The position numbers and the translations under genes were made by a program. Below, piece by piece: positions 527 to 47,616 of a stretch of 64,000 nucleotides of DNA. Source of the DNA: Pseudomonadota bacterium (GTDB lineage Bacteria; Pseudomonadota; Alphaproteobacteria; Rhizobiales; Hyphomicrobiaceae); NCBI GenBank assembly GCA_018242295.1, contig JAFECE010000002.1, forward strand, positions 1-64,000, written 5' to 3'. The notes beneath the pieces were generated by a model. That model ran no database searches, had not been told where the DNA came from, and worked only from the letters and a program-made list of their open reading frames with translations. The number at the start of each line of letters is the position of its first letter. Position 1 is the stretch's first letter.

Positions 527-639
527 CGCCGCTTCGAGGGTGGGTCGCCAGCGATACCACTCTGCCCGCAACACGCGATCTCTTGCTGACACGCTGACTC
601 TCGTGTGCAAATTGGTCAGCCACGTAATCAACACGGTTC

Positions 640-2820: not shown

Positions 2821-2821
2821 C

Positions 2822-4024: not shown

Positions 4025-4038
4025 CGGGAGGCGGCACA

Positions 4039-4431: not shown

Positions 4432-4455
4432 CGCGGCAGGAAGGATCACACTCAA

Positions 4456-6160: not shown

Positions 6161-6164
6161 CGCC

Positions 6165-8977: not shown

Positions 8978-8978
8978 C

Positions 8979-10634
8979 ATGGCGAAGAAGAAGACCAAGA
9001 AACTTTGCAATCAATTGCAAAACCCGTTTCCCGAAATCCCCGATCCATTGGGGCACGGGCAACGGGCGGTCGATTACTTGCGCTCGTTGAAGCATCCGAA
9101 ATCGCTGCTGCCGGGTCACGCTTTCCAGCTCGATCCCTGGCAGGAAGAAATCGTCCGCAAGATTTACGGTCCTCGTGACGCGGATGGCCGACGCATCATC
9201 CGCAACGTCACTATGTTGCTGCCGCGCGGCAATAGAAAGACAAGCTTAGGCGCGGCGCTCACGTTGCTCCACACCGACGGTCCCGAAGCCGTACCGGGCG
9301 GTGAAGTCATCCTCGCTGCCGGAGATCAGAAGCAAGCCAAGATCGCCTTCCGAGAGATTGAAGGCATCATTCGTTCAGGCGACAAAAGCCTGTGGAAAAA
9401 AGGTTACGTCGGCAAGTTGGCCGGTAAAGACGAAGATTTCATCCGCCTTCGCGAGTACAAAAACCAAATCCAATTCCCGAATGAAAGCTTCGTTGAAGCG
9501 ATCAGTTCCGACGCTGGGACGCAGCACGGCCGCACGCCGACGTTCGCGCTCGTCGATGAAATCCACGCTTGGAAGAAGGCCGATCTTTGGGAAGTCATTC
9601 TCACTGGCTTGGTCAAGGTGCCGGGCAGCTTGCGTGTCGTCATCACAACGGCGGGCAGGGGACAGGAGAACGTCGCCTATAAGGTAATCGACTACGCCCG
9701 CAAGGTCGCAAAGGGTGAGATCGACGACCCGCACACCTTGCCGATCTTGTTCGAAACTTCGCCTGACGTCGATTGGCGAGACGAGAAAGTTTGGCACGCC
9801 GTAAATCCAGGTTTGAAGCATGGGTACCCCGATCTTCATGGACTTCGACAGCTTGCCCGCGAAGCCGCTGAAAGACCGGCAGATCGCGAAGCTTTCAGGC
9901 AATTGCACCTCAACATCTGGCTCGGACACTCGTCTGATCCGTTTGTCGAGATGTCGATCTATGATCACGGCAACGCCCCGGTTGATCTTGAAAACCTGAA
10001 AGGCAAGCCGTGTTGGCTGGCGGTCGATCTTTCAAGCACAAGCGATCTGACTGTCATCGTCGCCGTATGGCGCGACGGCGAAGGCTATATCGCGCACCCG
10101 TGGTTTTTCTGCCCGCGCGACAGCATCGAACGCAAAGCCGATATCGACGGGGTTCCTTATCCAATTTGGGCAAATGAAGGGTTCATTCAGCCTACTCCCG
10201 GCAACACCATCGATTTCAATCGCGTAGAAGATACCATCCGGAACGTCTGCGAAGACTTTGACGTGCGCGAGATCGCCTTCGATCCGCACATGGCTCACAA
10301 CATGATGCAGAGCTTGTTGGAAGACGGTTATCCGTGCGTAGCCTTCCGACAGGGTTGGGTCAGCATGGCCCCCGCCGTCAAAGAGCTTGAACGCGCAATT
10401 CTTGCGCGACAGCTTCAGCATGGCGGCCATCCTGTGCTCCGGCATCACATCGATAGCGTTGCCGTCCACACCGACAGTGCCGGAAACCGACTGTTCCACA
10501 AAGGCAAGAGTCGTGACCGCATCGACGGTGCGGTGGCGCTTGCTATGGCCGTTGCTCGCGCCTCAACCGGCAACGACTCCCGTTCAATCTATGACGACGT
10601 ATCCGCAAGGCCGGAAGGCTTGCTTGTATTCTAG
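8979..10634 (+). CDS. terL: Large terminase subunit
   Basis: The DNA-packaging motor and headful/cos nuclease. The 551-aa protein has an N-terminal ATPase with a Walker A-like PRGNRKTS (residues about 82-89) and Walker B LVDEIHAW (Asp193, Glu194), and a C-terminal RNase H-like nuclease beginning WLAVDLSSTSD (Asp350, Asp356), with further acidic positions near EIAFDPHMAH and DRIDGAVALAMA. Its placement after the neck genes instead of before the portal is unusual. Codons 9-14 are encoded by the 18-bp palindrome in a different frame from the other copies. Confidence 0.95.
   Translation: MAKKKTKKLCNQLQNPFPEIPDPLGHGQRAVDYLRSLKHPKSLLPGHAFQLDPWQEEIVRKIYGPRDADGRRIIRNVTMLLPRGNRKTSLGAALTLLHTDGPEAVPGGEVILAAGDQKQAKIAFREIEGIIRSGDKSLWKKGYVGKLAGKDEDFIRLREYKNQIQFPNESFVEAISSDAGTQHGRTPTFALVDEIHAWKKADLWEVILTGLVKVPGSLRVVITTAGRGQENVAYKVIDYARKVAKGEIDDPHTLPILFETSPDVDWRDEKVWHAVNPGLKHGYPDLHGLRQLAREAAERPADREAFRQLHLNIWLGHSSDPFVEMSIYDHGNAPVDLENLKGKPCWLAVDLSSTSDLTVIVAVWRDGEGYIAHPWFFCPRDSIERKADIDGVPYPIWANEGFIQPTPGNTIDFNRVEDTIRNVCEDFDVREIAFDPHMAHNMMQSLLEDGYPCVAFRQGWVSMAPAVKELERAILARQLQHGGHPVLRHHIDSVAVHTDSAGNRLFHKGKSRDRIDGAVALAMAVARASTGNDSRSIYDDVSARPEGLLVF
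9004..9021. repeat. Phage palindrome copy 3
   Basis: Exact TTTGCAATCAATTGCAAA, 25 bases after the terL start codon. Here it encodes CNQLQ instead of LQSIAK, so it is conserved as DNA and not as peptide. Confidence 0.9.
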
Positions 10635-10644
10635 GTGACGACCG

Positions 10645-13600
10645 ATGTCAGACGAAGCACGCCTCTTAGTCTCGCTTGAAGCGCGGCTCAATCAATTTGA
10701 GAAGGCCTTCGACCGGGCGGGCAATGTCGCCGAGCGCGGCTGGCAGCGCGTCGAAAAGCGAACCAAAGAAGCTGGCGACCGGATGTCTGCCTCCATGGGC
10801 GAGTCCGTAGAGAAGATGAACCGAACGCTGGGGCTGATCGGCCTCGGTATCGGACTGCGCGAAGTCGAAGAAATGATCGACGCATATGCACGGTTATCTG
10901 CTCGCGTGAACATCGCAGCAGGGTCCGTAGAAAAAGGTGCGGCCGTTTTAGAGCGGCTGGACGTAGCATCCCGGCAAGCTCGCGTCTCCAACGATGACCT
11001 CGCGAATAGCTATCTTCAAAGCAAGGACCAACTGGACGCGCTCGGCTACAGCACCGAAACTCAGATTGAATACCATCAAGCGCTGGCAACGGCCCTGAAG
11101 TTATCCGGGGCATCGGCCGACAAAGCGGCAACGATCCAAGATGCTTTGGCAAAGTCGCTGGCCGACGGCGGCATTCAAAGCAAGGCGCTCAACAAGATGT
11201 TCGTTGATGGCGGCCGCCTAGCCAAGGTCTTCGCCGATTATCTCGGCGTCCCGGTATCGCAATTGGCGGTGATGGCCGATCAGGGCAAGCTGACCAGCAA
11301 CGTCATGGTGCGCGCGTTGAAGGGGTCACTTGGCCAGCTCAACGACGAGCTGAGCAAGCACCCTATGCAGTTCAGCGAAGCCATAACAGCGCTTCGCGAT
11401 GCTCTAGAAGATTACGTCGGCAAAGCAGCGCTTGCAGCGGGCATCGGCGACTCGCTTGGTGCCAGCGTCAAGTTCGTCACCGAGAACTTCAACTCCCTAG
11501 CTGACGGTGCCGCAGCGGCAGCGGCCGTTCTGTTGTCCAGATACCTGCCGGGTCTCGCGCGTATTGCCGCGACGACGCTGACCAATCCATGGATAGCCCT
11601 CGCAGCAGGAGCGGCGGCTGCGGCTTACGCGATTGACGAATACGACGGCAAGATCAAGCTCGCGGATGGATCGCTCGTCACGCTCAAGGACCTTGCCGGG
11701 TCCGCGTGGGAGGAAATTAAAGCAGGGGGCGAGATTGCGGCTCAAGCCATCGAAGCCGCCTACGTCGAAGCCGTGCAGTTCGTCACGAAGGCACTGAGCG
11801 GCGTTGGCGTCACGCTCAACGATCTTGAGAAGTTCACCATCAACTTCGCGCAAGGCGTCGTCTCGTCAATCGTGTTCGTCTATGATGAGACGATTGCTGT
11901 CTTCAAAGGCCTGCCGCCCGCGCTTGCTGAGTTGTTCATCAACGCTCTTAATTCGATCCGCGCGACGTTCGAAGACCTACTCAACTTCATTGTTGACGGC
12001 CTCAATCAGGTCATCGGCCTTGCCAACATGGCGGGCGACAGGATCGGCGCACACATCCCGACTTTTGATCGCATCGACCTTGGACGCTTCAAGAACGACT
12101 ATGCAGGTGCTGGAAAAGCGCTTGGAAAAGCCCTCGGAGACGGCCTCGACGACGCTTTGAAGCCGCGCGTCCGTCAAACTCTCGATGCCATGCGGTCTGC
12201 GGCGTCTGCCGCGCTCGACAATTTCCAGAAAAAGGCCGCGCAACACGCTCAAATCCGAGAAGCTGGGGCGCGGCAATCGAATGCCAGCGCCGCGATTGAT
12301 ACCCAGGACAACGAGAAACCGGCGGTCAATAAGCAGTGGGAAGCCGATATTCGGAAGTTCCAACAAAACCTTGTTCTAATGCGCGCCGAAACGGCCGCCC
12401 GCGCATCCGCAACCGGCACCATCAATCAGCAGGACGCAGCAATTGAGGCATTCCGAAAAGAACAGGAGCTATTGAACCAAGCCCAAGCGGCGGGCGTCGA
12501 AATCACCGATCAGGTGAAGGAGAAAATCCATTCTCTCGGTGAAGCCTACCGGCAGGTGGCTTTGGCGGCGAAGGAAGTCGCAGACGCTCAACAGGAAGCT
12601 CGGAAGGCCGCCGCTGATTTCGAGAACGCCGAAAAATCGAGCTTCAAGGGCTTCTTTCAAGACCTGGCGAAAGGCAAGAGCGCCACTGAAGCCTTGCGCA
12701 ATGCTCTTTATAATCTCGGCACCAAGCTCATGGACGCCGGGCTCGATCAGATTGCCAACAGTCTGTTCAAGAATACGGGATCATTCCTCGCTCAGCCGAA
12801 CAGCGGGACAGTAGGCAGCGCAAACATTGCCGCCGGTGTCGTCAACGTCGGAGGCAGCGGTAGCATTCCGGGCGTTGGCAGCGTTGCTGGCGGCAGCACG
12901 TTGCCGACACCGTCTAATCCGCTTGGTGGTCTCGGTGCATTGTTCGGCTTGGCTCCGGCCGCAGCACCCGCATTGCTGAAGCCGTCAGCACCGAAATCGA
13001 TCCCGCAAGCCCCGGCTCCGTTGCAATCAATTGCAAAACCCGCGCCGACCCAGGCCATCACCGACACTGCAACCAAAGCCGCAGAAACGGCTCTCCCGAA
13101 CTTCGCGGCATCGCCTGCATTCAAGGCCGCAACAGAAACAGCACTCCCCAATTTTGCGTCGTCGCCTGCATTCAAATCCGCAGCGGAGAAGATGGCCCCG
13201 GCCATCGCCAAACAATCCGACTTCGCGTCTAAGTTTGATCAGTCGAAAATCTTCGGACAGAGTGGACACGGGCAGAGCTTGACAAAAGTCTATGCTCCGG
13301 ACGGCACGACAGCTCTTGTCGATCAGCAGTACGCCGACAGGTTTCAAGGATTGATCGGCGACCTGCATGAGCGCGGTTATAAAAACTTCCGTCTCGATCA
13401 GGGCGGCGGCTTCGTTGATCGCAACATGCGCGGCACCAACAAGCTATCTGAGCACGCAAAGGGCAACGCACTCGACATCAATCCCGCGAACAATCCGTTC
13501 ATGACGCACAAAACGGACCTGCCGTCGGACATCTCGCAGATGGCCCAAGCTCGTGGCTTGAAGTGGGGCGGCGATTGGAAGACTCGCACCGACCCGATGC

Positions 13601-14295
13601 ACTTCCAAGTCGATAAAAACGTCAGCAATGACCAGATCGCGGCGCTACAGCAACAGCAGCAGGCCGAGAGACTGCTTCAGCAGCAGACCGTCCAAGCCAA
13701 CGCGGCACTGAAGACGATGCCGCCTTCGTTGCAAGGCGTCCAAACAGGCTCGCAGGGCCTTGAAGGCGCACTCGGTCAGATGACGACACAGATGGCGGCA
13801 GGCGCACCGGCAGCCAATTCCTTCTCATCATCGCTGCAAAGTCTCATAAGTTCGCTCGCCTCTAAACCAGGAGGTGGCGGCGGGCTCATGTTGGGCGGAT
13901 TATTTGGCTTTGCTGAAGGCGGGCAAGTTTCCGGCCCCGGTTCCGGAACATCTGACTCCGTCCCGGCGATGCTTTCCGATGGAGAGTTCGTGGTGAACGC
14001 CAAGGCTGCATCGAGACACGGCCGATTGTTGGCGATGATCAACGACGGCAAGGTGCCGAAGTTCGCAACGGGCGGTCCTGTGACCGGCTTCTATCACGGC
14101 GGCAACAACAGCGTGACCAACATCAACGTCACGGCGCACGGCAGCGGCAACGGCTTGGCTGATCAGATTGCGGAGAAAGTGGCTAGAGCCAGCAAGGCGA
14201 GCCAACCGCCTCCAGATACCTTCCGCAGAAGCGACACCCAAAGGCTTGCGATGGCGGGAATTGCCACCCGCCAAGCTGCGCAGAGGAACGGCTGA
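10645..14295 (+). CDS. Tail tape measure protein with internal M15 peptidase domain
   Basis: Sets tail length and is ejected with DNA. The 1216-aa protein has an N-terminal helical region, hydrophobic segments at about 280-330, long coiled coils at about 560-680, and a Gly-rich C-terminus with the usual FAEGGQVSGPGSG and LSDGEFVVNAKA motifs. Residues about 870-990 form a VanY/M15-like zinc peptidase with SEHAKGNALDINP (metal His and Asp) and DPMHFQVD (final His), suited to local cell-wall cleavage during DNA entry. A tandem 17-residue repeat (ETALPNFAASPAFKA type) precedes it. The 4th palindrome lies inside. No tail-tip genes follow. Confidence 0.9.
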   Translation: MSDEARLLVSLEARLNQFEKAFDRAGNVAERGWQRVEKRTKEAGDRMSASMGESVEKMNRTLGLIGLGIGLREVEEMIDAYARLSARVNIAAGSVEKGAAVLERLDVASRQARVSNDDLANSYLQSKDQLDALGYSTETQIEYHQALATALKLSGASADKAATIQDALAKSLADGGIQSKALNKMFVDGGRLAKVFADYLGVPVSQLAVMADQGKLTSNVMVRALKGSLGQLNDELSKHPMQFSEAITALRDALEDYVGKAALAAGIGDSLGASVKFVTENFNSLADGAAAAAAVLLSRYLPGLARIAATTLTNPWIALAAGAAAAAYAIDEYDGKIKLADGSLVTLKDLAGSAWEEIKAGGEIAAQAIEAAYVEAVQFVTKALSGVGVTLNDLEKFTINFAQGVVSSIVFVYDETIAVFKGLPPALAELFINALNSIRATFEDLLNFIVDGLNQVIGLANMAGDRIGAHIPTFDRIDLGRFKNDYAGAGKALGKALGDGLDDALKPRVRQTLDAMRSAASAALDNFQKKAAQHAQIREAGARQSNASAAIDTQDNEKPAVNKQWEADIRKFQQNLVLMRAETAARASATGTINQQDAAIEAFRKEQELLNQAQAAGVEITDQVKEKIHSLGEAYRQVALAAKEVADAQQEARKAAADFENAEKSSFKGFFQDLAKGKSATEALRNALYNLGTKLMDAGLDQIANSLFKNTGSFLAQPNSGTVGSANIAAGVVNVGGSGSIPGVGSVAGGSTLPTPSNPLGGLGALFGLAPAAAPALLKPSAPKSIPQAPAPLQSIAKPAPTQAITDTATKAAETALPNFAASPAFKAATETALPNFASSPAFKSAAEKMAPAIAKQSDFASKFDQSKIFGQSGHGQSLTKVYAPDGTTALVDQQYADRFQGLIGDLHERGYKNFRLDQGGGFVDRNMRGTNKLSEHAKGNALDINPANNPFMTHKTDLPSDISQMAQARGLKWGGDWKTRTDPMHFQVDKNVSNDQIAALQQQQQAERLLQQQTVQANAALKTMPPSLQGVQTGSQGLEGALGQMTTQMAAGAPAANSFSSSLQSLISSLASKPGGGGGLMLGGLFGFAEGGQVSGPGSGTSDSVPAMLSDGEFVVNAKAASRHGRLLAMINDGKVPKFATGGPVTGFYHGGNNSVTNINVTAHGSGNGLADQIAEKVARASKASQPPPDTFRRSDTQRLAMAGIATRQAAQRNG
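13021..13037. repeat. Phage palindrome copy 4
   Basis: Seventeen-base copy (first T replaced by G) in the variable linker of the tape-measure gene, again encoding LQSIAK. Confidence 0.85.
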
Positions 14296-14349
14296 CGATG
14301 ACAGTGCACGATCATTGATATAAATGGCTTCTCAGCGGGAGGGGCCAAT

Positions 14350-31911: not shown

Positions 31912-33243
31912 ATGAGCAGCGTAAGACAACTACACGCATGGACGGCAAGCTTTGCCAACGACTTCCGCTCGTTCGCTCGTAACGAGCGCGGCGCGACGAT
32001 TGTCGTGGTTGCCCTGGTCATTCCGGTCGTGGTCGGCGCCATGGCGCTCGCCGTCGAGATTTCCTATTGGCACTGGCGGCAACGCGCCATGCAGAACGCC
32101 GCCGACGCGGCGGCGATAGCTGCCGCGACCAACGGCGGACCGACTTATGACGGCGAAGCAAACGCCGTCACGGCGCAGTATGGCTTCCGAAACGGCGTCG
32201 GCAACATCACGGTGTCCGCAACCAATCCAGCCACCGCGCCGGGATGCTCATCGAATTGTTACAGCGTTCAAGTCTCCGACAAGGTGCCATTATTCCTATC
32301 ACCGGTCATCGGCTACCAGGGGAACGCGACGGCAGCGAACGGCAAACGAGTGGAATTAATTAGCTCCACGGCCGTCGCAACGAGCGGTCCCGCCTATCCC
32401 TATTGCATCTTGGCGCTCGCGAGCAGCGGTGCGCAGGGGATCACCTCCAATGGCGCCCCGAACGCCAACCTCAATGACTGCAACACGATGTCGAATACCG
32501 GCTCGACCTGCAACGGCGGGAATTTGAACGCCGCTATGGGCGATGCGGCCGGTACCAACAAGGGCTGCGGTAATATTCAGAATTCCAATGTGCCAATAGT
32601 TACAGATCCTTATTCCGGCCTTGCCTCGAACATTCCAGCTAACCCCTGTCATACGTATCCGACCGAGCCAACAAAGCCGCACGATCCGCCGCTTTCATCC
32701 TCCAACAAATGGTCCGGAAGCTTTTCCTATGGTGGCGGAAATCACATTGTTTGCGGTGACCAGCAGCTGACCGGCAACACGACGATCAATGACGCCGTGT
32801 TGGTCATCGAAAACGGCCAGTTGGATACCAACGGCTATACGTTGTCGGGCTCCAATCTAACGATTGTGTTCACAGGCACCAATGGTGCTTCCTACCAGCA
32901 CTTTCCGAGCGGCGGCGGCACGCTCGACATTCAGGCGCCGGCCTCCGGCGACTGGAGCGGGGTTGCCATCTACCAGGACCCAAGCCTCACGAAGAACGTT
33001 GACGTTTCGGCTGCGGGCAATAGCCCAGCTTGGGATATCAGTGGCCTCGTCTATCTACCCCATTCGAGCGTGACCCTCAGCGGCGTCGTCAATAAGTCGG
33101 CGAACGGCGCCCTGTGTTTCGCAATGGTCGTCGACAACATCACGATCAACGGCACCGGCTCGATCTATAAAAACGATAACCAGTGCGGTTCAGCCGGACT
33201 TACACCGCCGGAAGGTGGACATCGCGGCGCGCTGGTCAACTGA
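31912..33243 (+). CDS. tadG: TadG-like pilus assembly protein, copy 1
   Basis: A 443-aa protein with one N-terminal membrane helix in a pilin-like RGATIVVVALVIPVVVGAMA and then YWHWRQRAMQNAADAAAIAA, the signature of TadG-related proteins. The long exported part has a Cys-containing, Asn/Gly/Thr-rich region and a right-handed beta-helix-like stretch (NTTINDAVLVIENGQLDTNG). ATG 31912 is chosen because upstream sequence is coding only for the pilin remnant. The stop overlaps the next start (TGATG). It is closely similar to the gene at 46255. Confidence 0.85.
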   Translation: MSSVRQLHAWTASFANDFRSFARNERGATIVVVALVIPVVVGAMALAVEISYWHWRQRAMQNAADAAAIAAATNGGPTYDGEANAVTAQYGFRNGVGNITVSATNPATAPGCSSNCYSVQVSDKVPLFLSPVIGYQGNATAANGKRVELISSTAVATSGPAYPYCILALASSGAQGITSNGAPNANLNDCNTMSNTGSTCNGGNLNAAMGDAAGTNKGCGNIQNSNVPIVTDPYSGLASNIPANPCHTYPTEPTKPHDPPLSSSNKWSGSFSYGGGNHIVCGDQQLTGNTTINDAVLVIENGQLDTNGYTLSGSNLTIVFTGTNGASYQHFPSGGGTLDIQAPASGDWSGVAIYQDPSLTKNVDVSAAGNSPAWDISGLVYLPHSSVTLSGVVNKSANGALCFAMVVDNITINGTGSIYKNDNQCGSAGLTPPEGGHRGALVN

Positions 33244-33776
33244 TGGCACCCTCATCAAAATGGCAAGTGTTTCCGCGCGATACGCGAGGAACCGCCGCGA
33301 TTGAGTTTGCCGGGGCAGCCATGCTGCTCCTCATCGGTCTCCTCAACGCCGTCGACCTGAGCTTCTACGCGCTGAAGCGAATGGACGTTGAGAACGCTGC
33401 CGAGATCGGTGCACAGGCGGCCTGGAAGGCGTGCTCCGACAGCGCCAAGTTACCCGCGACGCTAAATTGCTCAGGTCTGAACGCTGCGATCACCACGGCA
33501 ATTCAGGCCACGTCCCTTGGAACCTCCGTATCGTTAGCTTCTGGTTATCCGAGCGAGAGCTATTATTGCGTCGACTCTTCAAATGCTCTTCAGCCGGTCG
33601 GCAGCCTCTCAAGCAAGCCTGCCGATTGCTCGTCGGTGGGCAACGCCAGCACGTCGCCCGGCGACTACGTCCAGGTGCAAGTCACCTATCCCTATAAACC
33701 CTTATTTGGGCTCACCGTACTTGGAGCTTCCGGACTGACTTCGATATCGATGACGAGCTGGATGCGGCTGGGCTAA
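33243..33776 (+). CDS. TadE-like pseudopilin, copy 1a
   Basis: A 177-aa TadE-family minor pseudopilin: basic leader, then RGTAAIEFAGAAMLLLIGLL and the helix continuing to NAVDLSFYALKRMDVENAA, with the conserved Glu in AIEFA. The exported domain contains two Cys pairs (KACSDS, LNCSG, YYCVD, PADCSS), suggesting disulphides. It overlaps tadG by one codon and stops two bases before the next gene. Confidence 0.85.
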   Translation: MAPSSKWQVFPRDTRGTAAIEFAGAAMLLLIGLLNAVDLSFYALKRMDVENAAEIGAQAAWKACSDSAKLPATLNCSGLNAAITTAIQATSLGTSVSLASGYPSESYYCVDSSNALQPVGSLSSKPADCSSVGNASTSPGDYVQVQVTYPYKPLFGLTVLGASGLTSISMTSWMRLG

Positions 33777-33777
33777 C

Positions 33778-34155
33778 ATGGGTGCCTTACAGCGATCATC
33801 GTTCAAAGGCTGCGACGAGGGAAGTGTTGCCGTCGAGTTCGGCCTGACCTTCCCGCTACTGATCATGCTATTCATCGGGACGCTTTACATCGGGATCGTG
33901 ATGTATTCGCTCTCCGGATTGCACAACGCGGTTGAGGCGGCGGCGCGCTGCTATTCGGTCGATGCGACCCGGTGCGCCACGGCGACGGCAACCCAGGCTT
34001 ACGCGAAGGCACATTACTACGGAAGTAGCACGCCAACTTTCGTCGCGACGGCGACCTCGTGCGGCCATCGAGTGAGCGCCACGACAAGCGTCGTGCTCAG
34101 CGCCGGATTGACGAGCTGGAGTATTCCCCTCACCGCGAGCGCGTGCTTCCCCTGA
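33778..34155 (+). CDS. TadE-like pseudopilin, copy 1b
   Basis: A 125-aa TadE/TadF-type protein: EGSVAVEFGLTFPLLIMLFI starts the membrane helix with its Glu, followed by HNAVEAAARCYSVDATRCAT and a small Cys-stabilised domain (ATSCGHRVSA, ASACFP). It completes a three-gene set with the two genes before it. No TadA ATPase or TadB/C genes are in the window, so the machine must be encoded elsewhere or be absent. Confidence 0.85.
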   Translation: MGALQRSSFKGCDEGSVAVEFGLTFPLLIMLFIGTLYIGIVMYSLSGLHNAVEAAARCYSVDATRCATATATQAYAKAHYYGSSTPTFVATATSCGHRVSATTSVVLSAGLTSWSIPLTASACFP

Positions 34156-34185
34156 ACGCGTTTTCTGTACCTGACACAAAAGTCT

Positions 34186-34971: not shown

Positions 34972-35184
34972 ATGGCACGACCACGTCAGCAGCCCCAGCC
35001 AGTGAAGAAAGACGGCTTCTGGTATTTCGTCCAGCTTGTCCCTCCTGAGTACGCCAGCGTCGAGCCCTGGAGGCGGATCGTTAACAGCACCAAAATCTGG
35101 ATTACCGATGACCCGCGAGGCGTGACCGCCCAAGCCATCGTCGATCGCATGTATCCCACAAGCGGAAGTTGGCTGCCGTATTGA
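34972..35184 (+). pseudogene. int: 5' fragment of a second, different tyrosine integrase
   Basis: Seventy residues beginning MARPRQQPQPVKKDGFWYFV then QLVPPEYASVEPWRRIVNST and ending WITDDPRGVTAQAIVDRMYP. This N-terminus (VKKDGFWYxVxxVPxEYAxxDPRxxVxxSTxI) belongs to a DUF6538-like integrase group common in rhizobia and unrelated to the P4-type fragment at 23270. About 400 residues, including the catalytic domain, are missing. Its place just after att core C repeats the arrangement at 23091-23407. Confidence 0.75.
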
Positions 35185-35345
35185 CCGCAAACCAGATGCT
35201 GTCGCGGCTACGTCTGCTAGGTAAGGGAGTCACTGGAAGGTTCCACCCGCGCTTATAACCGAAAGTCACCATTCGTCGTTGAGCAACGTTATCGTCGGCA
35301 GATTTCTGCTTTGCCGAGAAAGCGGACGCAAACTGCGAAAAGAAG

Positions 35346-35670
35346 TCAGTACAAACCACACCTTGAATCGCATCTGCTGTAGTTCCGATAACTGTCGGCC
35401 GCCATAAGTTTTCTTTTCGGGCAAAGGTTCTGCTCGCCGCCGAGGCATGGCTGACAATGCATGCAACTCGCGGATGCCCAACCGACGCCAACGCGCTCTC
35501 CTATCTGAGGCCCGTTAGCGTTTGAGCCAAGAGCTGTGACGCGTCCGATTACCTCGTGCGCCTGTACGAGTGGGAAGGTGGTACCGCCCCACTCATTCTG
35601 CATCATCGAAACCTCGGAGTGGCAAATGCCACAGGTTATGGACGCAGTCGCAACTGCTTTTGCGGTCGGC
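35346..35670 (-). pseudogene. N-terminal fragment of a zinc alcohol dehydrogenase
   Basis: Minus-strand reading gives [20 protein letters not shown] then [19 protein letters not shown] and [20 protein letters not shown]. These are the catalytic-zinc (GxCHSE, HE) and structural-zinc Cys motifs of CAD/YahK-type dehydrogenases. One expected Cys spacing and the upstream start are lost, and the frame leaves the family after LCPKRK. About 100 of some 350 residues remain. The gene was probably cut when neighbouring integrative elements rearranged. Confidence 0.7.
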
Positions 35671-35896: not shown

Positions 35897-36493
35897 TCAG
35901 GCCGGCTGCAGCTCCCGCATGGGCGTCCACCTGGAGAGCCAATAGTCTACGCTCACATAACGTCCGCCACCGTAGAAAAAGAGAACAGCCAGCATAATCA
36001 CATACGTGGCCGAGAATTCGATTCCGTTGTTCAGGATGACCGGATCGCCAAGCTCAGTGATGTAATTGAAGCGTCCAGGAAAGTTCTGCGCAAGCCAGTC
36101 CATAAAGCCCTGCATTCGAATTGCCGATTCCGCAGTCTTCCCGGCGATTGCCGCCCAGCCATGCGACCAGTGAACGGTCAGGGAGGCGACAATCATCGTA
36201 AACATCAACGGTACTGAGATTAGCCGTGTGAGTAGCCCAATTGCCAAGCAAACAAGGCCGGCCGCCTCCGTCGCTGTCGCGAGAAACGCCATCAGAACTG
36301 GCGCTGGCATTCCGAGGCCGCCTTGTGCGACCGGCGTCGCAAACCATTCGACGGTTCCTTGAAAGCCGGTGATCTTGGCGTGCGCTCCCACATAAAAGAT
36401 TGGCAGGAGATACAGACGTATCGCCAGCAGCGCCAAGAAGTCGAAATTTTTCGACTTTTCCAGAAAGGTATTTGCTAATTGGACCAGCTTCAT
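35897..36493 (-). CDS. DoxX-family membrane protein of the MNIO/RiPP operon
   Basis: A 198-aa DoxX-type protein with four membrane helices (about 20-40, 65-90, 95-115 and 160-185) and typical segments FLALLAIRLYLLPIFYVGAH, WFATPVAQGGLGMPAP and GLLTRLISVPLMFTMIVASL. ATG 36493 has AAGGAG eight bases upstream and starts ten bases after the previous stop. In bufferin and Hvf loci a DoxX gene (HvfD-like) is a regular partner of the precursor, MNIO and DUF2063 genes. It is thought to serve the membrane side of the system, but its exact job is unknown. Confidence 0.9.
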   Translation of the reverse strand: MKLVQLANTFLEKSKNFDFLALLAIRLYLLPIFYVGAHAKITGFQGTVEWFATPVAQGGLGMPAPVLMAFLATATEAAGLVCLAIGLLTRLISVPLMFTMIVASLTVHWSHGWAAIAGKTAESAIRMQGFMDWLAQNFPGRFNYITELGDPVILNNGIEFSATYVIMLAVLFFYGGGRYVSVDYWLSRWTPMRELQPA

Positions 36494-36503
36494 GGCTTCT
36501 CCT

Positions 36504-37217
36504 TCAACATTCGGTTCCACAAATTACCAAGCCGTTTTGTGATTGTTCGATGACCCACTGTCTGATTGCATCCGTGGTCAGCTGGACTGGCGGCGCAGAA
36601 ACGAGAGCATTGAATGCCACTTCGCCCTCGCGCCGAATAAGATCGATCAGGCAATAGTCCACATAAGAAAGTGACCGAGTCACAACGGTATGCTTTACCG
36701 TGCGATATACGGCATAGACATAGTTCTGCTCCGTTCCGTCGAGTTCAACCGGAATGTCTACCAGAGTAATATCAAAAGGCGTGGCGACGATTTCAGCGGT
36801 AGGATTCAAGGAAATTTTCGACGTATCCCAATTCGTATTACCGCTCAATTGGGGAGCTTGGATTCGTGCGGAGTCGATTTCAGTCGACAGTAGAATCCAT
36901 TCGTATTCCAGCAGGCAAATAAGCGGCTTTGAAAGCTCATGGCCGCGATGAGCAAACTCGACGATTTCCGTCGCGATATGATGGAACTGCGGTCGCTTAG
37001 CGCCATGCCTGGACAGGAAATGACTCGCAATCTCATCGAGCTTGCCTGGAGCAAGTGCTGTGCCAAATCTTGGAAAGCTGCATTTCAAAACTTCGAGAAT
37101 GTTTTCGCGAAGCAGCTCGCTGTAAATTGACGGCTTACGCCGCCGGATTTTTTGACAGAGTTCGTCTGTCTCCGACACCATACGAGAAGGCGCATGAGCT
37201 TCAGATTGAGCACGCAT
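36504..37217 (-). CDS. DUF2063-like partner protein (BufC/HvfC-type)
   Basis: A 237-aa protein expected to pair with the MNIO and present the precursor to it. The N-terminal region YSELLRENILEVLKCSFPRF, GKLDEIASHFLSRHG and KPLICLLEYEWILLSTEID fits the helical DUF2063 domain, although diverged. A second, strand-rich domain follows (ATPFDITLVDIPVELDGTEQ), ending in a winged-helix-like region. ATG 37217 overlaps the MNIO stop by 17 bases; ATG 37250 is an alternative. Divergence from the family means the call rests partly on position. Confidence 0.75.
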   Translation of the reverse strand: MRAQSEAHAPSRMVSETDELCQKIRRRKPSIYSELLRENILEVLKCSFPRFGTALAPGKLDEIASHFLSRHGAKRPQFHHIATEIVEFAHRGHELSKPLICLLEYEWILLSTEIDSARIQAPQLSGNTNWDTSKISLNPTAEIVATPFDITLVDIPVELDGTEQNYVYAVYRTVKHTVVTRSLSYVDYCLIDLIRREGEVAFNALVSAPPVQLTTDAIRQWVIEQSQNGLVICGTEC

Positions 37218-38046
37218 ACCTATCGCCCGCCGCGATTGATTTCTGAACATCTCCGACTTCGCGGATCAGTTCATCAAGAGAGGGTACCTGATTATCGCGT
37301 TCAAGAAGCAAAGGCCGTGGGCCGTGCCAACCCCAGACCTCGTGGCCTAGTCGAACAACTTCCTCGCCGACCTTGGTGCCGTGCGTGTCCAATAGCGATC
37401 CATCCTCAAGCTCCAGATGGCCCGCGACGTGATAGTAAACGATTGCGTTTGACGGCAAGCACCGCACCATGGCCACGGCATCTTCCAAGTGATTGCGAGA
37501 GTTTACGTAGACATTATTTATATCGAGCAGGAGGCCGCATCCAGACTGCTCGGCAATAGCGGCTAGGAATTCCGCCTCGGGCATTTGATCTTCATAACGA
37601 TGATAGTAGGAGATATTCTCCAGAACGAGCTGGCGACCAACGATGTCTTGAACCTGGCAAATTCGCCCGGTTAGGTATTCGATATTCTCTTTACGACGCG
37701 GCACTGGAAGGAGATCGTAGAGATATCCCGATGAATCCCGGCACATGCTCAAATGATCGCTGTATATCGAGATACCGTAGTCGTTTAGGAAGCTGCAAAC
37801 GTCGCGAATAAACCCCACGTTGAGCGGTACAGTATCTGCGATCGACAGGCTCAATCCATGGGCAATCAGTGGATATTTATCGGCCAGAATGTCCAGTTGG
37901 TCGCGCTTCCTGCCGCCGATCCCCATCCAGTTTTCCGGCGCGATCTCCAGGAAATCTATATCCTCTCGCGCCGGTTGGATACAGAGCGCTTCAAGCAACT
38001 CTGAGCGCAAACCGATGCCGAGAGCATTTTCTTTCACTTGCCGCAT
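37201..38046 (-). CDS. bufB: MNIO-family (DUF692) multinuclear iron oxidase
   Basis: A 281-aa TIM-barrel enzyme of the multinuclear non-haem iron-dependent oxidase family, which modifies Cys residues of partner peptides (as in methanobactin, bufferin and Hvf pathways). Conserved ligand positions are visible: His63 (AHGLSLS), His98 (SDHLS), Glu143-Asn144 (LVLENIS), Asp175/Asn178 (LLDINNVYV), His206 and His210 (YHVAGH), Asp220/His222 (LLDTHG) and Glu249. It starts inside the precursor gene (13-base overlap) and runs into the DUF2063 gene, so expression of all three is coupled. Cytoplasmic by sequence. Confidence 0.92.
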   Translation of the reverse strand: MRQVKENALGIGLRSELLEALCIQPAREDIDFLEIAPENWMGIGGRKRDQLDILADKYPLIAHGLSLSIADTVPLNVGFIRDVCSFLNDYGISIYSDHLSMCRDSSGYLYDLLPVPRRKENIEYLTGRICQVQDIVGRQLVLENISYYHRYEDQMPEAEFLAAIAEQSGCGLLLDINNVYVNSRNHLEDAVAMVRCLPSNAIVYYHVAGHLELEDGSLLDTHGTKVGEEVVRLGHEVWGWHGPRPLLLERDNQVPSLDELIREVGDVQKSIAAGDRYACSI

Positions 38047-38336
38047 ACCCCTTGCGCCAATCTATCGATAGTGCTTTCGGTGACGTCGTGCCCTTTACCT
38101 GTCATTCCGCACTTACCATCCCGAGCACGCACGAGCACGCCATTGGGATCACTATCTAGCTTTCTTGCGCTGTAGAACTTTTCCGTTCCGCATTTTCCAC
38201 TGGCACACTTTCCGCCTCCGTGTGGCTTGGCGGCCGGAGCGGCTGCGGTTGCGCCGTTGGTGCTTGGCGATTCCGCAAAAGCACTGGTCAGCATCAAGGA
38301 CGTAACAGCTATGCTAAGGGCGATTTCCTTTTTCAT
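38034..38336 (-). CDS. Exported Cys-containing precursor peptide (bufferin/HvfA-like)
   Basis: A 100-aa small protein with a Sec signal peptide (MKKEIALSIAVTSLMLTSAF, cut after AFA), an Ala/Pro linker, and four Cys at 44, 49, 76 and 98 in GGKCASGKCG, DGKCGMTG and QGVCGK. The GKCxxGKCG pattern is like HvfA-type substrates of MNIO enzymes, but a compact domain (about residues 53-100) takes the place of simple repeats. ATG 38336 has GGAGA eight bases upstream and overlaps the preceding gene's stop (ATGA). It is the likely substrate of the MNIO encoded next; modified Cys would bind metal such as copper. Confidence 0.85.
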   Translation of the reverse strand: MKKEIALSIAVTSLMLTSAFAESPSTNGATAAAPAAKPHGGGKCASGKCGTEKFYSARKLDSDPNGVLVRARDGKCGMTGKGHDVTESTIDRLAQGVCGK

Positions 38337-39298
38337 TTCTTGTCTCCGGGTACATTGCCGAGTGGAAAGCACGAGAGATCACGGCCCGCATAGACTGGGC
38401 CATGGTAGGATTGTTTGATAACCTCGATGTTTTTGTCTTTGTCGATTATCGACCGTCCCATGAAGTGATCGAGGACAAGCATTTTCGGGTTTGCGGTAGC
38501 CGCAATTTGCCCGATCGTGGTCGGAGGGGCATGGAGGAAGCGGGATTGCTCATCCGCATCATCGTCGATTGCAGCAGGCATCATTAGAATGTCGGCGCCA
38601 CGCGCAAAGTCGACGAACTCTTTCCGGCTGCCGTTCTGGTCGGCCGAAAGCACAAGCACGCCCTCCGGGGTTTCGATGCGATACGCAAGGCACGGCACGT
38701 CGCCGTGCGGGATTCCGAACGCGTAGATTGTGACCCCATCCCCTTTGTACACTAGCGTTTGCGTAGGGCTGGTTACATCCACGTCGTTGGGATGAACTTC
38801 CAATTGAAGGCCATCGCTCGCGTTGCGCAGTCCGGAGAGGTACTGAAAGGATCCGCCCCCGCCATTAGCGCTGCCGAAGGTGCGATCAAAAAACTGCGTC
38901 ATACTCGGAAAATTGCTGTTGCCGGTCGGCCCGACTAGCGTGACGGAGTGCTTCGTAGAAACGAAGAATGCGCCCTTCAGAATCGCTGGCAAATCCGTCA
39001 CGTGGTCCGTGTGGAAATGCGATATGCCGATAAAATCTAGATCTTCCAGGCGGGCACCCGATTCTCCGTACCGCAGGAACGTTCCGCCGCCAGCATCAAT
39101 CAGGAGGCGTGCTTTTCCATCGATCCACACGATCGCACCGGAAGAGGCACGTGCATCGTCCGAGATTGGACCGCCGGAGCCCAAAAGCTGGAGGGCAATC
39201 TTACTTCGAGAGCACGCAAATTGCTCGGCTCGGATTGGAGAACTTAAGGAAAGGGTAAGCGCAATCGCAATCAGACAACGAGCCTTCATTTTTTCCAT
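38333..39298 (-). CDS. Secreted metallo-beta-lactamase-fold hydrolase leading the RiPP operon
   Basis: A 321-aa MBL-fold enzyme with a signal peptide (MKARCLIAIALTLSLSSPIR, cut after RA) and the zinc motif HFHTDH (His94, His96, Asp98, His99), further GIPHGDVPC and DHFMGR elements, resembling periplasmic ribonuclease Z/arylsulfatase-like MBL proteins. The stop overlaps the precursor start (ATGA), so it is the first gene of the five-gene operon. This enzyme is not part of the bufferin/Hvf core set I know. A role in periplasmic release or detoxification is inference. ATG 39289 is an alternative start. Confidence 0.88.
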   Translation of the reverse strand: MEKMKARCLIAIALTLSLSSPIRAEQFACSRSKIALQLLGSGGPISDDARASSGAIVWIDGKARLLIDAGGGTFLRYGESGARLEDLDFIGISHFHTDHVTDLPAILKGAFFVSTKHSVTLVGPTGNSNFPSMTQFFDRTFGSANGGGGSFQYLSGLRNASDGLQLEVHPNDVDVTSPTQTLVYKGDGVTIYAFGIPHGDVPCLAYRIETPEGVLVLSADQNGSRKEFVDFARGADILMMPAAIDDDADEQSRFLHAPPTTIGQIAATANPKMLVLDHFMGRSIIDKDKNIEVIKQSYHGPVYAGRDLSCFPLGNVPGDKK

Positions 39299-39375
39299 GC
39301 CTTGCTAGAGATGGGTCAGACGGCACAGGCGCCGATCCATGCTGAAACGTTTCGCGTGCTGCTCGGAAAATATAC

Positions 39376-39393
39376 AAAGCCTATGGAGGCTTT
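39376..39393 (-). terminator. Terminator between small-protein genes and the RiPP operon
   Basis: AAAGCCT-CCAT-AGGCTTT on the minus strand followed by GTATATTTT, 25 bases past the stop of the 39418 gene. The promoter of the five-gene operon would then lie in 39299-39375. Confidence 0.6.
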
Positions 39394-39417
39394 AGTAATC
39401 CAATTGATTATCGCTAT

Positions 39418-45228: not shown

Positions 45229-45347
45229 ACCGGCACCATCGACGTGCGCGACCCGGAAGTCCCCGCGTTGCTCGATTCTAGTTCGGGCGTCGTCAACTTT
45301 AATATGAGTTCCATAGCGCGAAGTATCAGCCGTTGCAGCTAGCGTGC

Positions 45348-45713
45348 TTATGGAAAACACGCTGTGGCACTTAAGGGTATGCTCCAGGTTTTGATGCCGG
45401 CGCTGAGCACGAAGTTCGACGTGGCGCTGACTTGGTGGCCGCACGCAGCGATAGAGGCGATGAAGGTCGGAGTTCCGGTGCCGTAATAGTAGTTGAGGGC
45501 ATAGGTCTGCGTCGCGGCGGCAGTCCCACACCGGCTGCTATTGACCGAATAGCATCGAGCGGCGGCCTCAGCGGCGTTATGCAAGCCGGTCGCCGCATAC
45601 ATCGCTAGTCCAACGTAAAGAGTGCCGACGATAAGCATGATCAGAGCAGGAGAGATCAGTGCGAACTCCACTGCCACGCCGCCTTTGTCGCACCTTCCGA
45701 TGGCCCGCATCAT
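45348..45713 (-). CDS. TadE-like pseudopilin, copy 2b
   Basis: A 121-aa protein closely matching the one at 33778: KGGVAVEFALISPALIMLIV starts the helix, then HNAAEAAARCYSVNSSRCGT and a final SIPLSATACFP. The conserved Glu and all Cys are kept. Third gene of the inverted duplicate triplet. It starts two bases after the previous stop, the same spacing as in copy 1. Confidence 0.85.
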   Translation of the reverse strand: MMRAIGRCDKGGVAVEFALISPALIMLIVGTLYVGLAMYAATGLHNAAEAAARCYSVNSSRCGTAAATQTYALNYYYGTGTPTFIASIAACGHQVSATSNFVLSAGIKTWSIPLSATACFP

Positions 45714-45715
45714 GA

Positions 45716-46258
45716 CTACCCCAGACGCATCCAGGTCATCATGCTGATCGATTTGACGCCAGAAGCGCCCATGACGCTGATTGCGAATAACGGCCTATAA
45801 CTGTAGGTCACCTGGACGTGGATATAGTCACCTGGGGATGTGTTGGCGCTGCCAACTGCCGAGCAATCAGCGGGTTTGTTGGCAAGGCTGCCGACGGATT
45901 GCAAAGTCCCCAAGGAGTTGACGCAATAATAGCCCTCAGTCGGATAACCCGAGGCTAATGAGACCGAGCTTCCTAGCGACGTGCTCTGAATGGCCGACGT
46001 GATTGCTGCGTTCAGCCCCGAGCAATTTTGCGTTGCAGGCAACATGGAACTGTCCGAACAGATTTTCCAGGCCGCCTGCGCCCCGATCTGGGCGGCATTC
46101 TCAACGTCCATTCGCTTCAAGGCATAATTACTCAAGTCAGCGGCGTTTAGAACGCCGAGGACGAGCAGCATGGCTGACCCTGCGAACTCGATTGCGGCGG
46201 TCCCGCGAACATCGTGCCGGAATAAGCGCAGCACTGATTTTGGCGAGCGTGCCATCAA
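45716..46258 (-). CDS. TadE-like pseudopilin, copy 2a
   Basis: A 180-aa protein closely similar to the one at 33243: RGTAAIEFAGSAMLLVLGVL, NAADLSNYALKRMDVENAAQ and the same Cys pattern (KICSDS, QNCSG, YYCVN, PADCSA). Overlaps the TadG-like gene by four bases. Second gene of the duplicate triplet. Confidence 0.85.
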   Translation of the reverse strand: MMARSPKSVLRLFRHDVRGTAAIEFAGSAMLLVLGVLNAADLSNYALKRMDVENAAQIGAQAAWKICSDSSMLPATQNCSGLNAAITSAIQSTSLGSSVSLASGYPTEGYYCVNSLGTLQSVGSLANKPADCSAVGSANTSPGDYIHVQVTYSYRPLFAISVMGASGVKSISMMTWMRLG

Positions 46259-47616
46259 TTCACCAGCGTGCCGCGCGACCCGCCTTGCGGTAAGTTAAGC
46301 CCGGCGGATTTGCACTGAGTGTCGTTTGCGAAGATCGAGCCGGTGCCGTTGATCGTTATGTTGTCCACGACCATGCCGAAGCAAGTCGCCCCGCTGGCAG
46401 ATTTGTTGACTGCACCGCTCAAGGTAACGCTCGAATGCGGTAAATAGACCATGCCGCTCAGATTCCAGGTTGGACTGTTACCGGCAGCGGAAATGTTGAC
46501 GTTGGTCGTTAGGTTCGGGTCCTGGAAGATGGCCATTCCACTCCACGGACCAGAGGTCGGTGCGGAAATATCCAAGGTGCCGCCCCCTGTTGGGATGTGC
46601 TGATAGGACGAGCCGTTGGTGCCCGTGAAGACGATGGTCAGATTGGTGCCAGAGAGCGTATGGCCGTTGGTATCCAACTGACCGTTCTCGATGATCAGGA
46701 CTGCGTTGTTAATGGTCGTGTTGCCCGCCAATTGCATGTCGCCACATACCACTTGGTTGCCGCCTCCATAGGAATGACTACCTGACCATTGATTCGCGGA
46801 CGGCAGCGGGGGGTCCTTCTTCTTGGCCGGTTCCAGCGGATACGAGCTACAGGGGTTGGAGGGAATATTAGTGGCGAGATTGGAATAGGGATCAGCAACG
46901 ACCGGCCTGTTGGAATTTTGAGTAACCCCGCAACCGTTGTTGGTGCCGTGCGCGTCGCCTATAGCGGCATTCAAATTGTGACCGTTGCACGTGGCGCCGG
47001 TGTTGGACATCGCATTGCATCCCTGAAGGTTCGCTTTCGGGGCTCCATTGGAGGTGATGCCCTGGGCTCCGCTGCTGGCTAGAGCCAAAATGCAGTATGA
47101 CGTATCGGCACCGCTCGTTGCGACTGCGGCCGCAAAGAGGGAAGTCGCGCCTTTCCCGTTGACCGTGGTGCTTCCCTTGTAGCCCACGACTTGAGAAAGA
47201 AAGAGCGGCACCTTGTCGGAGACCTGAACCGTGTAGCAATTCGATGTGCAGCCTGCCGCGGTGCTTGGGTTGCTCACCGACACCGCGATGTTACCACTTC
47301 CATCCTGAAACCCATAAAGCGCGGCGACTGCCTTTCCTTCGGCGATGTAGTTGGAGCCATCATTTGTGGCAGCGGCGATTGCAGCCGCGTCAGCCGCATT
47401 TTGCATGGCACGATGGCGCCAATGCCAATAGGAAAGCTCGACCGCGAGTGCCATCCCTCCGACGAGCACTGGCATGAGCAAAGCGATAACGATGATCGTT
47501 CCGCCGACCTGATTGTCGACGAAATCGCGAAAGATCTTAGGCATTGCGATGTGCATGGCCGAAGTTCGATCACGCTGCGTTGTTTGCGCCGCCAGCAATA
47601 GCTTTCGCGTTTCCAT
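46255..47616 (-). CDS. tadG: TadG-like pilus assembly protein, copy 2
   Basis: A 453-aa paralogue of the gene at 31912. Membrane helix TIIVIALLMPVLVGGMALAV then YWHWRHRAMQNAADAAAIAA, with the exported region matching copy 1 over long stretches (NGQLDTNGHTLSGTNLTIVF, VYLPHSSVTLSGAVNKSAS). By eye about three quarters of the last 170 residues are identical. No Flp pilin precedes this copy. Starts at 47616, 47556 or 47544 are all possible. Intact, so this may be the functional copy, although the pilin gene would have to be elsewhere. Confidence 0.85.
   Translation of the reverse strand: METRKLLLAAQTTQRDRTSAMHIAMPKIFRDFVDNQVGGTIIVIALLMPVLVGGMALAVELSYWHWRHRAMQNAADAAAIAAATNDGSNYIAEGKAVAALYGFQDGSGNIAVSVSNPSTAAGCTSNCYTVQVSDKVPLFLSQVVGYKGSTTVNGKGATSLFAAAVATSGADTSYCILALASSGAQGITSNGAPKANLQGCNAMSNTGATCNGHNLNAAIGDAHGTNNGCGVTQNSNRPVVADPYSNLATNIPSNPCSSYPLEPAKKKDPPLPSANQWSGSHSYGGGNQVVCGDMQLAGNTTINNAVLIIENGQLDTNGHTLSGTNLTIVFTGTNGSSYQHIPTGGGTLDISAPTSGPWSGMAIFQDPNLTTNVNISAAGNSPTWNLSGMVYLPHSSVTLSGAVNKSASGATCFGMVVDNITINGTGSIFANDTQCKSAGLNLPQGGSRGTLVN

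What the first reader, a model, noticed from the sequence alone, without database searches (positions are those of the whole stretch)
35897..39298. Five-gene MNIO/RiPP operon led by a secreted MBL-fold hydrolase
Seen: MBL-fold hydrolase, 100-aa exported Cys peptide, DUF692/MNIO oxidase, DUF2063-like protein and DoxX protein read in one direction, joined by overlaps (ATGA, 13 and about 17 bases) or a ten-base gap. Known: bufferin and Hvf loci contain precursor, MNIO, DUF2063-like and DoxX genes and make metal-binding modified peptides. Inference: this is such a locus with an added exported hydrolase translationally tied to the precursor, a combination I do not recall as described.
Basis: partly seen in the sequence, partly recalled or inferred. 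Interest (0 to 1): 0.88.

Follow-up and report, generated by a model that had tools for sequence, protein, structure and literature searches.

The report
Exported-peptide operon with companion hydrolase
A five-gene bacterial operon that probably makes an exported, chemically modified, copper-binding peptide together with an exported zinc-type hydrolase; the combination was already noted in one sentence of a 2025 survey, but in related bacteria it repeatedly sits beside inhibitor-resistant oxidase or sulfite-handling genes, which suggests a role in protecting respiration.

Summary
The five genes are there, on the minus strand, 39298 to 35897: exported MBL-fold hydrolase, 100-aa exported Cys peptide, MNIO, DUF2063/HvfC-like partner, DoxX/HvfX. 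The operon is conserved: complete and in order in 31 of 32 related loci (one cut by a contig end) and on 4 of 5 plasmids opened. The 54% may reflect the survey's 10-bp rule: 20 of my 37 loci pass it, yet the MBL gene adjoined every strong precursor hit (9 of 9 genomes, 16 of 16 plasmids). New here: outside the window the operon sits near cytochrome bd genes (24 of 37 loci, remnants in 3 more) or, in alphaproteobacteria, sulfite exporter/dehydrogenase-like genes. In a control, 0 of 87 other MNIO genes lay within 10 kb of a cydA, against 2 of 2 of this type (8 of 8 in a larger draw). Most likely: a thiooxazole, copper-binding periplasmic peptide with a partner hydrolase, serving tolerance of respiratory poisons or sulfur stress. 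The window copy itself has no such neighbour.

The parts
38333..39298 (-). Exported RNase Z/arylsulfatase-type MBL-fold hydrolase, 321 aa, with N-terminal signal sequence (by eye); H94 H96 D98 H99 H198 D220 H278 and H256 invariant in 13 aligned sequences
38034..38336 (-). RiPP precursor, 100 aa: signal peptide (about 1-21, by eye), four invariant Cys (44, 49, 76, 98) in contexts KCA, KCG, KCG, VCG; CxxxxC motif CASGKC
37201..38046 (-). [not shown]
36504..37217 (-). DUF2063/HvfC-like MNIO partner protein; longest ORF starts at 37250
35897..36493 (-). DoxX/HvfX membrane protein (longest ORF starts at GTG 36520)
   Evidence: NF050144 203.7 bits, cut-off 80
39375..39394 (-). Inverted repeat AAAGCCT-N4-AGGCTTT with TATATT just downstream, upstream of MBL: possible operator or terminator; not seen upstream of MBL in relatives
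   Evidence: weak

Best explanation
The operon makes a secreted, post-translationally modified copper-binding peptide. Precursor and MNIO genes overlap and are probably translated together; the MNIO and its DUF2063 partner oxidise Cys residues in [K/V]-C-[G/A] sites to 5-thiooxazoles (inferred from the closest characterised systems; up to four, -4.03 Da each); the peptide is exported, loses its signal and binds copper in the periplasm. DoxX acts in the membrane. The MBL-fold enzyme, exported to the same compartment (apparently as a lipoprotein in some relatives), is a two-metal hydrolase of the RNase Z/arylsulfatase group that works on a periplasmic small molecule in the same stress response. 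The genomic company outside the window (cytochrome bd; sulfite exporters and sulfite dehydrogenase) points to protection of respiration against inhibitors or sulfur oxyanions. Shown: anatomy, conservation, co-inheritance, linkage in relatives. Inferred: modification chemistry, copper binding, substrate of the MBL, the stressor.
For: Five-gene order in 31 of 32 loci and 4 of 5 opened plasmids. All four Cys invariant; in 30 distinct precursors 124 of 127 Cys (taken from residue 23 on) are followed by Gly or Ala, the only residues that FonBC accepted there among the variants tested (PMC13097082 section 12). MNIO near HvfB in family and fold: PF05114 286.6 bits, NF003818 311.4 bits, seven top structural matches all MNIO, ligand motifs conserved. 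Partner HvfC-like 88.8 bits; HvfX 203.7 bits. Pairwise-distance correlation MBL-precursor 0.956, MBL-MNIO 0.933. Precursor-first searches: MBL adjacent in 9 of 9 strong genome hits and present in 16 of 16 plasmids. Seven MBL metal ligands invariant.
Against: No modification, copper binding or hydrolase activity is shown for any member. The MNIO and partner fall below the NCBIfam HvfB and HvfC cut-offs and the precursor below that of HvfA. The conserved terminal Cys-Gly overlaps the MNIO start codon, so Cys98 may be kept partly for that reason. The window copy has neither cyd nor sulfite genes within 12.7 kb upstream and 8.9 kb downstream. DoxX tracks the others poorly within alphaproteobacteria (r 0.40 with MBL). 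Relatedness of the loci inflates all counts and correlations.
Confidence: 0.62

Rival explanations
1. The MBL enzyme is a tailoring or trimming enzyme of the peptide itself, in the manner of PqqB, an MBL-fold enzyme of a RiPP pathway (recalled): it cleaves or hydrolyses the modified peptide in the periplasm.
Against: Divergent relatives of the same MBL (34-42% identity) occur without this operon in 6 of 8 positive genomes of a 398-genome sample (one of the six lies near a different MNIO), and on two Bradyrhizobium plasmids (one opened: directly behind genes annotated as sulfite oxidoreductase, no MNIO annotated within 9 kb), so the family has a use of its own.
Confidence: 0.22
2. A plain copper-buffering bufferin-like locus; cytochrome bd and sulfite genes are passengers on shared stress islands and plasmids.
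For: Characterised MNIO peptides with such partners bind copper (PMC13097082, PMC12452194, passages). The operon sits on plasmids and its distribution is patchy: 0 of 21 congeners, 0 of 14 genomes of other genera of the family.
Against: Linkage to bd genes recurs on both sides of the operon, with different bd types, in Photobacterium, Vibrio/Aliivibrio, Aeromonas, Chromobacterium, Sphingomonas and enterobacterial plasmids, and other MNIO genes lack it (0 of 87).
Confidence: 0.3
3. The window copy is a decaying acquisition that is no longer functional.
For: Only carrier among 22 genomes of its genus examined; broken alcohol-dehydrogenase-like frames lie just downstream (by eye); no sigma-70-like promoter found.
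Against: All five frames are open and the residues invariant in relatives are kept in precursor, MBL and MNIO.
Confidence: 0.06

Closest known systems
'CxxxxC' MNIO precursor family and its loci (PMC12452194, passages read)
   Same: Signal peptide, CxxxxC motif, MNIO, DUF2063 and DoxX genes, Lactamase_B_2 (PF12706) gene in 54% of loci
   Different: Probably nothing: the window is a member as far as the passages allow. Their profile and Fig. S3 could not be seen. The passages I saw give no function for the MBL and count unrelated genes only within 10 bp.
Oxazolin, hvfABCX of nontypeable Haemophilus influenzae (PMC13419390: abstract, introduction, section 23 read)
   Same: Exported precursor, MNIO, RRE partner, DoxX-like HvfX in one operon; MNIO fold and ligand motifs
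   Different: HvfA has repeated EGKCG motifs; no MBL gene is named in the operon; window MNIO and partner score below the HvfB/HvfC cut-offs.
Bufferins Buf1 (DUF2282) and Buf2 (PMC12452194, passages)
   Same: Exported Cys peptides with MNIO, DUF2063 partner, often DoxX; thiooxazoles, copper
   Different: Precursor has no DUF2282 match; MNIO scores 242.7 against the BufB cut-off of 310.
MBL-type arylsulfatase of Pseudoalteromonas atlantica (8gyg) and RNase Z / PNGM-1
   Different: 16-24% identity; below the RNase Z model cut-off (84 against 292.95 bits); exported and operon-bound.

Membership tests
CxxxxC MNIO RiPP family (PMC12452194) | Cys-x4-Cys motif in a signal-peptide precursor | tested here: met
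   CASGKC at 44-49, both Cys invariant in relatives; signal peptide by eye only
CxxxxC MNIO RiPP family (PMC12452194) | Match to the authors' CxxxxC profile | not testable with these tools
   Profile and supplement not available
CxxxxC MNIO RiPP family (PMC12452194) | MNIO, DUF2063 and DoxX genes, often PF12706 | tested here: met
   All above Pfam cut-offs
MNIO (PF05114) | Family score and fold | tested here: met
   [not shown]
MNIO (PF05114) | Conserved iron ligands, including the site-3 Asn, Asp and His of HvfB | tested here: met
   H63, H98, E143, D175, N177/N178, H206, H210, D220, H222, E249 invariant in 15 MNIOs; aligned to 3BWW; which residues are ligands is partly recalled
HvfA/oxazolin | KCGExKCG precursor model NF050137 | tested here: not met
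   12.9 bits, cut-off 19.5
HvfB equivalog NF003818 | Cut-off 360 bits | tested here: not met
   311.4 bits
HvfC equivalog NF050145 | Cut-off 142 bits | tested here: not met
   88.8 bits
HvfX NF050144 | Cut-off 80 bits | tested here: met
   203.7 bits
Buf1 bufferin | DUF2282 precursor | tested here: not met
   No Pfam match at E 0.1
5-thiooxazole metallophore made by MNIO and partner | 5-thiooxazole on Cys and copper binding | not testable with these tools
   Needs mass spectrometry and metal assays; site context fits
RNase Z TIGR02651 | Cut-off 292.95 bits | tested here: not met
   84 bits
MBL superfamily, two-metal site | HxHxDH plus distal His, Asp, His (recalled) | tested here: met
   Invariant in 13 sequences

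The most novel reading that the evidence does not exclude
The MBL-CxxxxC-MNIO operon is a mobile respiratory-protection module: a thiooxazole peptide and an exported hydrolase that keep respiration going when heme-copper oxidases are poisoned (sulfide, cyanide, NO) or when sulfite accumulates, working with cytochrome bd in gammaproteobacteria and with sulfite exporters or sulfite dehydrogenase in alphaproteobacteria. This would be an MNIO peptide tied to respiratory-inhibitor or sulfur stress rather than to copper overload alone.
Probability: 0.35. Interest if true: 0.75.

Novelty: new member of a known kind. Interest (0 to 1): 0.55.

Why it matters
MNIO peptides are a large and mostly unexplored group, and the characterised exported ones are read as copper buffers. 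A branch that is paired with an exported hydrolase and repeatedly placed beside cytochrome bd or sulfite-resistance genes gives a concrete, testable function beyond copper overload, and an entry to the unknown role of the MBL partner. The correction to the published 54% figure, if it holds on the authors' own set, would make the MBL gene a defining part of the system rather than an optional one.

Tried and rejected
Isothiocyanate hydrolase (SaxA) idea: raised because the Pectobacterium plasmid Drgb3 carries the operon; the 49-kb stretch opened around it names no such gene and the literature listing (listing only) was not followed further; no direct comparison was run, so this is dropped as a lead rather than excluded. 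Anti-Pycsar (13.7 bits, cut-off 50) and cyclic-nucleotide phosphodiesterase (75.3, cut-off 400) are below cut-off. A shared operator upstream of the operon: the window's dyad is not seen upstream of MBL in relatives. FNR-like box (consensus TTGAT-N4-ATCAA, recalled; 9-10 of 10 positions) upstream of MBL in 9 of 37 loci (Photobacterium, Aliivibrio, Chromobacterium; 1-9 of 200 shuffles as good, no correction for 37 tests); in L016 and L017 the listed site is TTAATAACAATCAA, but an equally good TTGAC-type site is visible. It is absent (8 of 10 at best) in the window, the other alphaproteobacteria, Aeromonas, L021 and the plasmids: a lead only. Special constraint on the precursor's signal peptide: 0.468 mean identity against 0.36 for the MBL signal region, suggestive at best. 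Two weak precursor hits: L037 lies among frames of what look like efflux-pump genes and has no MNIO or MBL match; L038 is an EGKCG-type precursor beside another MNIO with no MBL; both left out of the 9 of 9 count, which keeps only hits above 130 bits. E. coli genomes hold no near match to the E. albertii operon (near mode only). No paper in the library holds both 'MNIO' and 'cytochrome bd' or 'DUF692' and 'cytochrome bd'. A PqqB literature search returned nothing. The YeiE label of the LysR gene is weak: another LysR model scores higher.
Full report
WHAT IS THERE. Five ORFs run on the minus strand from 39298 to 35897. Pfam names four of them Lactamase_B_2 (44.3 bits), MbnB_TglH_ChrH/MNIO (286.6), DUF2063 (31.6) and DoxX (59), each above its cut-off; the 100-aa peptide has no Pfam family at E 0.1. 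NCBIfam places the MNIO nearest HvfB (311.4 bits, cut-off 360), the partner nearest HvfC (88.8, cut-off 142) and DoxX inside HvfX (203.7, cut-off 80); the peptide reaches only 12.9 bits with the HvfA model (cut-off 19.5). So the locus is Hvf-like but mostly outside the curated Hvf equivalogs.

CONSERVED OPERON. A scan of genome contigs with the MBL alone returned 32 loci. In 31 of 32 the order MBL, precursor, MNIO, partner, DoxX is complete; L004 is cut by its contig end. They span Sphingomonadales, Nitrospirillum, a record labelled Acetobacter, Chromobacterium, Photobacterium, Vibrio, Aliivibrio and Aeromonas. A plasmid search gave 18 records, 13 of them Escherichia albertii. I opened 5 of the 18: four (Sphingomonas LK11, Klebsiella pneumoniae, Pectobacterium Drgb3, E. 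albertii) hold all five genes; Bradyrhizobium betae has only a 43% MBL relative, directly after genes annotated as a molybdopterin oxidoreductase and sulfite:cytochrome c oxidoreductase subunit B, with no MNIO annotated within 9 kb. Pairwise distance matrices agree closely (MBL-precursor 0.956, MBL-MNIO 0.933, MBL-partner 0.899, MBL-DoxX 0.789; 34 distinct loci; within 12 alphaproteobacterial loci 0.88, 0.94, 0.96 and only 0.40).

DISTRIBUTION. The precursor profile found strong matches in 2 of 398 genomes of the phylum, the own genome being one (plus two weak ones set aside), in 1 of 60 relatives (the own genome; 0 of 21 congeners, 0 of 14 genomes of other genera of the family, 0 of 24 others of the order), in 8 of 345 genomes of the order of G252 (G252 itself included) and in 1 of 385 of the class (the own genome). 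It is rare and patchy, and sits on plasmids: consistent with horizontal transfer.

THE PEPTIDE. Window residues G42, C44, A45, G47, K48, C49, G50, T51, K53, P64, L68, V69, R70, A71, R72, D73, G74, C76, G77, G82, G96, C98 and G99 are invariant in ten aligned precursors, as are L7 and I9 of the signal region. In 30 distinct precursors, 124 of 127 Cys (taken from residue 23 on) are followed by Gly or Ala, and 89 of 127 are preceded by Lys (KCG 56, KCA 32, VCG 23). FonBC, a characterised thiooxazole-forming MNIO pair, tolerated only Gly or Ala after the Cys among the variants tested (PMC13097082 section 12, read). The precursor and MNIO genes overlap by exactly 13 nt in 35 of 36 loci; in the 36th (L021) my script chose a later start, and the longer ORF again gives 13 nt. 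The last codons, Cys-Gly-[K/Q/R]-stop, overlap the MNIO's start. This is a conserved coupling, and it also means that the last Cys may be conserved partly for the start codon.

THE MBL ENZYME. Seven two-metal ligands (H94, H96, D98, H99, H198, D220, H278) and H256, which resembles the extra catalytic His of RNase Z (recalled), are invariant in 13 sequences. The model is middling (pLDDT 71.3), but the fold is clear: arylsulfatase 8gyg ranks first by sequence and Foldseek; RNase Z and PNGM-1 lead by Z (24.2-24.9), with 8gyg at 23.6. Six of 37 MBL proteins carry a lipobox-like motif by a simple pattern. Divergent relatives without this operon account for 6 of 8 positive genomes (E at most 1e-30) of the 398; one of those six (L061) lies near a different MNIO.

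THE LITERATURE. PMC12452194 (passages read) built a profile 'CxxxxC' for the fourth largest group of exported MNIO precursors, 76 proteins, and states that besides MNIO, DUF2063 and DoxX genes 54% of these loci contain a Lactamase_B_2 gene. Our peptide's CASGKC fits. The survey counted unrelated genes only within 10 bp of a known gene. In my 37 loci the MBL-precursor gap is 10 bp or less in 20 (54%), and 16-32 bp in the other 17; that the two percentages are equal is partly luck, as my set is not theirs. Searching by the precursor instead of the MBL (although the profile was built from MBL-linked loci), the MBL is adjacent in 9 of 9 strong genome hits and on the same plasmid in 16 of 16. I conclude that 54% is probably a lower bound; the authors' set itself was not available.

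THE COMPANY IT KEEPS. In 37 loci (32 scan loci, 4 plasmids, the window), cydA and/or cydB lies in the held flank of 24, a short cydA remnant in 3 (L009, L010, L046), a YeiH-family exporter without cyd just upstream in 7 (8 with YeiH in all), and none of these in 3: L003 (which has a TDT/SLAC1 transporter and a catalase-like gene), L019 and the window. Among the 24, cydA is reduced to its first 80 codons in L012, and L008 and L024 are cut by the end of the held DNA. The bd genes lie upstream in Photobacterium and Aeromonas, downstream in Vibrio/Aliivibrio, downstream as a shorter CioA-like type in Chromobacterium (2 of 3 loci), downstream as cydABX in Pectobacterium and E. albertii, upstream as the shorter type in Sphingomonas MA1305 and the Klebsiella plasmid, downstream on the other strand in L008 (type judged by length and similarity). 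Ten of 15 alphaproteobacterial loci have a LysR gene (best NCBIfam model NF040786, selenium-associated, 199.6 bits, cut-off 250; second YeiE, 188.7, cut-off 480; one representative scanned; presence). YeiH (PF03601 213.1 bits, cut-off 24.5; TIGR00698 113.2, cut-off 232.6), TDT transporters (SLAC1 309.6 bits, cut-off 27.9; tdt 177.1, cut-off 237.25) and SorA/SorB sulfite dehydrogenase in LK11 (533.3 and 80 bits, cut-offs 600 and 93) were scanned as single representatives; a SorA relative (77% identity) also lies in L005. So the family names are near matches, mostly below the strict NCBIfam cut-offs. YeiE and YeiH give sulfite resistance in Salmonella (PMC12880088: title, start of abstract and one passage seen).

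CONTROL. In 99 genomes of the order of G252, 63 carry 89 MNIO genes and 81 carry a cydA. Only 2 of the 89 MNIO genes lie within 10 kb of a cydA on the same contig, and both are of this operon; 0 of the other 87 do, the nearest being 17 kb away. Many genomes are in pieces, so some links could be missed on either side. In the larger draw, 8 of 8 operon-bearing genomes have a cydA within 3 kb of the precursor, while the 6 other MNIO genes of those genomes have none near. These 8 genomes are two genera, so the independent events are few; the variety of arrangements is the stronger argument. The own genome has its single cydA on another contig. No paper in the library holds both MNIO or DUF692 and cytochrome bd. 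In Chromobacterium violaceum cytochrome bd protects against metals, NO, sulfide and cyanide (PMC11837568, passages including the abstract).

HOW IT PROBABLY WORKS. Precursor and MNIO are made together; the MNIO with its partner converts Cys to thiooxazoles; the peptide is exported and binds copper; the MBL enzyme hydrolyses an unknown periplasmic molecule. The neighbours suggest that the trigger is a poison of respiration or a sulfur oxyanion rather than copper overload alone. One view that unites both neighbourhoods is that sulfide or cyanide stress needs a resistant oxidase and also yields sulfite; this is inference.

LIMITS. Nothing here shows chemistry. The window copy lacks the telling neighbours (none in 12.7 kb upstream and 8.9 kb downstream), so its own role is argued from relatives. 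Signal peptides were judged by eye. Some loci are near-duplicates (L009 and L010; L012 and L013), which I kept in the counts of 37.

Plasmids are now 4 of 5 opened, not 4 of 4; the longer MBL-precursor gaps are 16-32 bp, not 11-32; scores below cut-off for the sulfite-linked neighbours and the better-scoring rival LysR model are now told.

Noticed in passing
window 31962-34167 and 45336-47533: Two sets of TadE/TadG-like pilus-assembly genes (named by eye) flank the operon region as inverted copies, 70-74% complementary, about 11-15 kb apart.
   Followed up: partly
window 35102-35606, minus strand: Broken zinc alcohol-dehydrogenase-like frames just downstream of DoxX (judged by eye).
   Followed up: no
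window 1-14300: Run of tailed-phage-like genes (portal, protease/capsid, terminase and tape-measure-like ORFs), probably a prophage (judged by eye).
   Followed up: no
L071 (own genome, contig C6, about 105 kb): A second MNIO locus in the same genome (371 bits with PF05114), with a small Cys-containing exported-looking peptide and a DoxX-like ORF nearby (the neighbours judged by eye).
   Followed up: partly
L012 4444-5657, L009/L010 5441-5635, L046 8408-8602, L047 3815-4036: Relics around the operon: cydA cut to 80 codons, 65-residue cydA remnants, and a TDT transporter N-terminus beside cydA on the Klebsiella plasmid; an IS1634 copy separates its cydB from MBL.
   Followed up: yes
L061 4750-7912: A solo-type MBL relative near a different MNIO and an NrsF-like membrane protein (by eye): perhaps an independent MBL-MNIO pairing.
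   Followed up: no
L016-L018, L020, L022, L023, L019, L033, L034, 74-142 bases upstream of MBL: FNR-like boxes before the operon in three genera, hinting at low-oxygen control.
   Followed up: partly
L049 17093-18861: On the E. albertii plasmid the operon and cydABX are followed by a gene annotated as TcdA/TcdB-type glycosyltransferase domain protein; not examined.
   Followed up: no
L009/L010 and L012/L013: Identical or near-identical loci under different names (S. aquatilis and S. sanguinis; a record labelled Acetobacter sicerae and Sphingomonas MA1305): a shared plasmid or a mislabelled contig.
   Followed up: no
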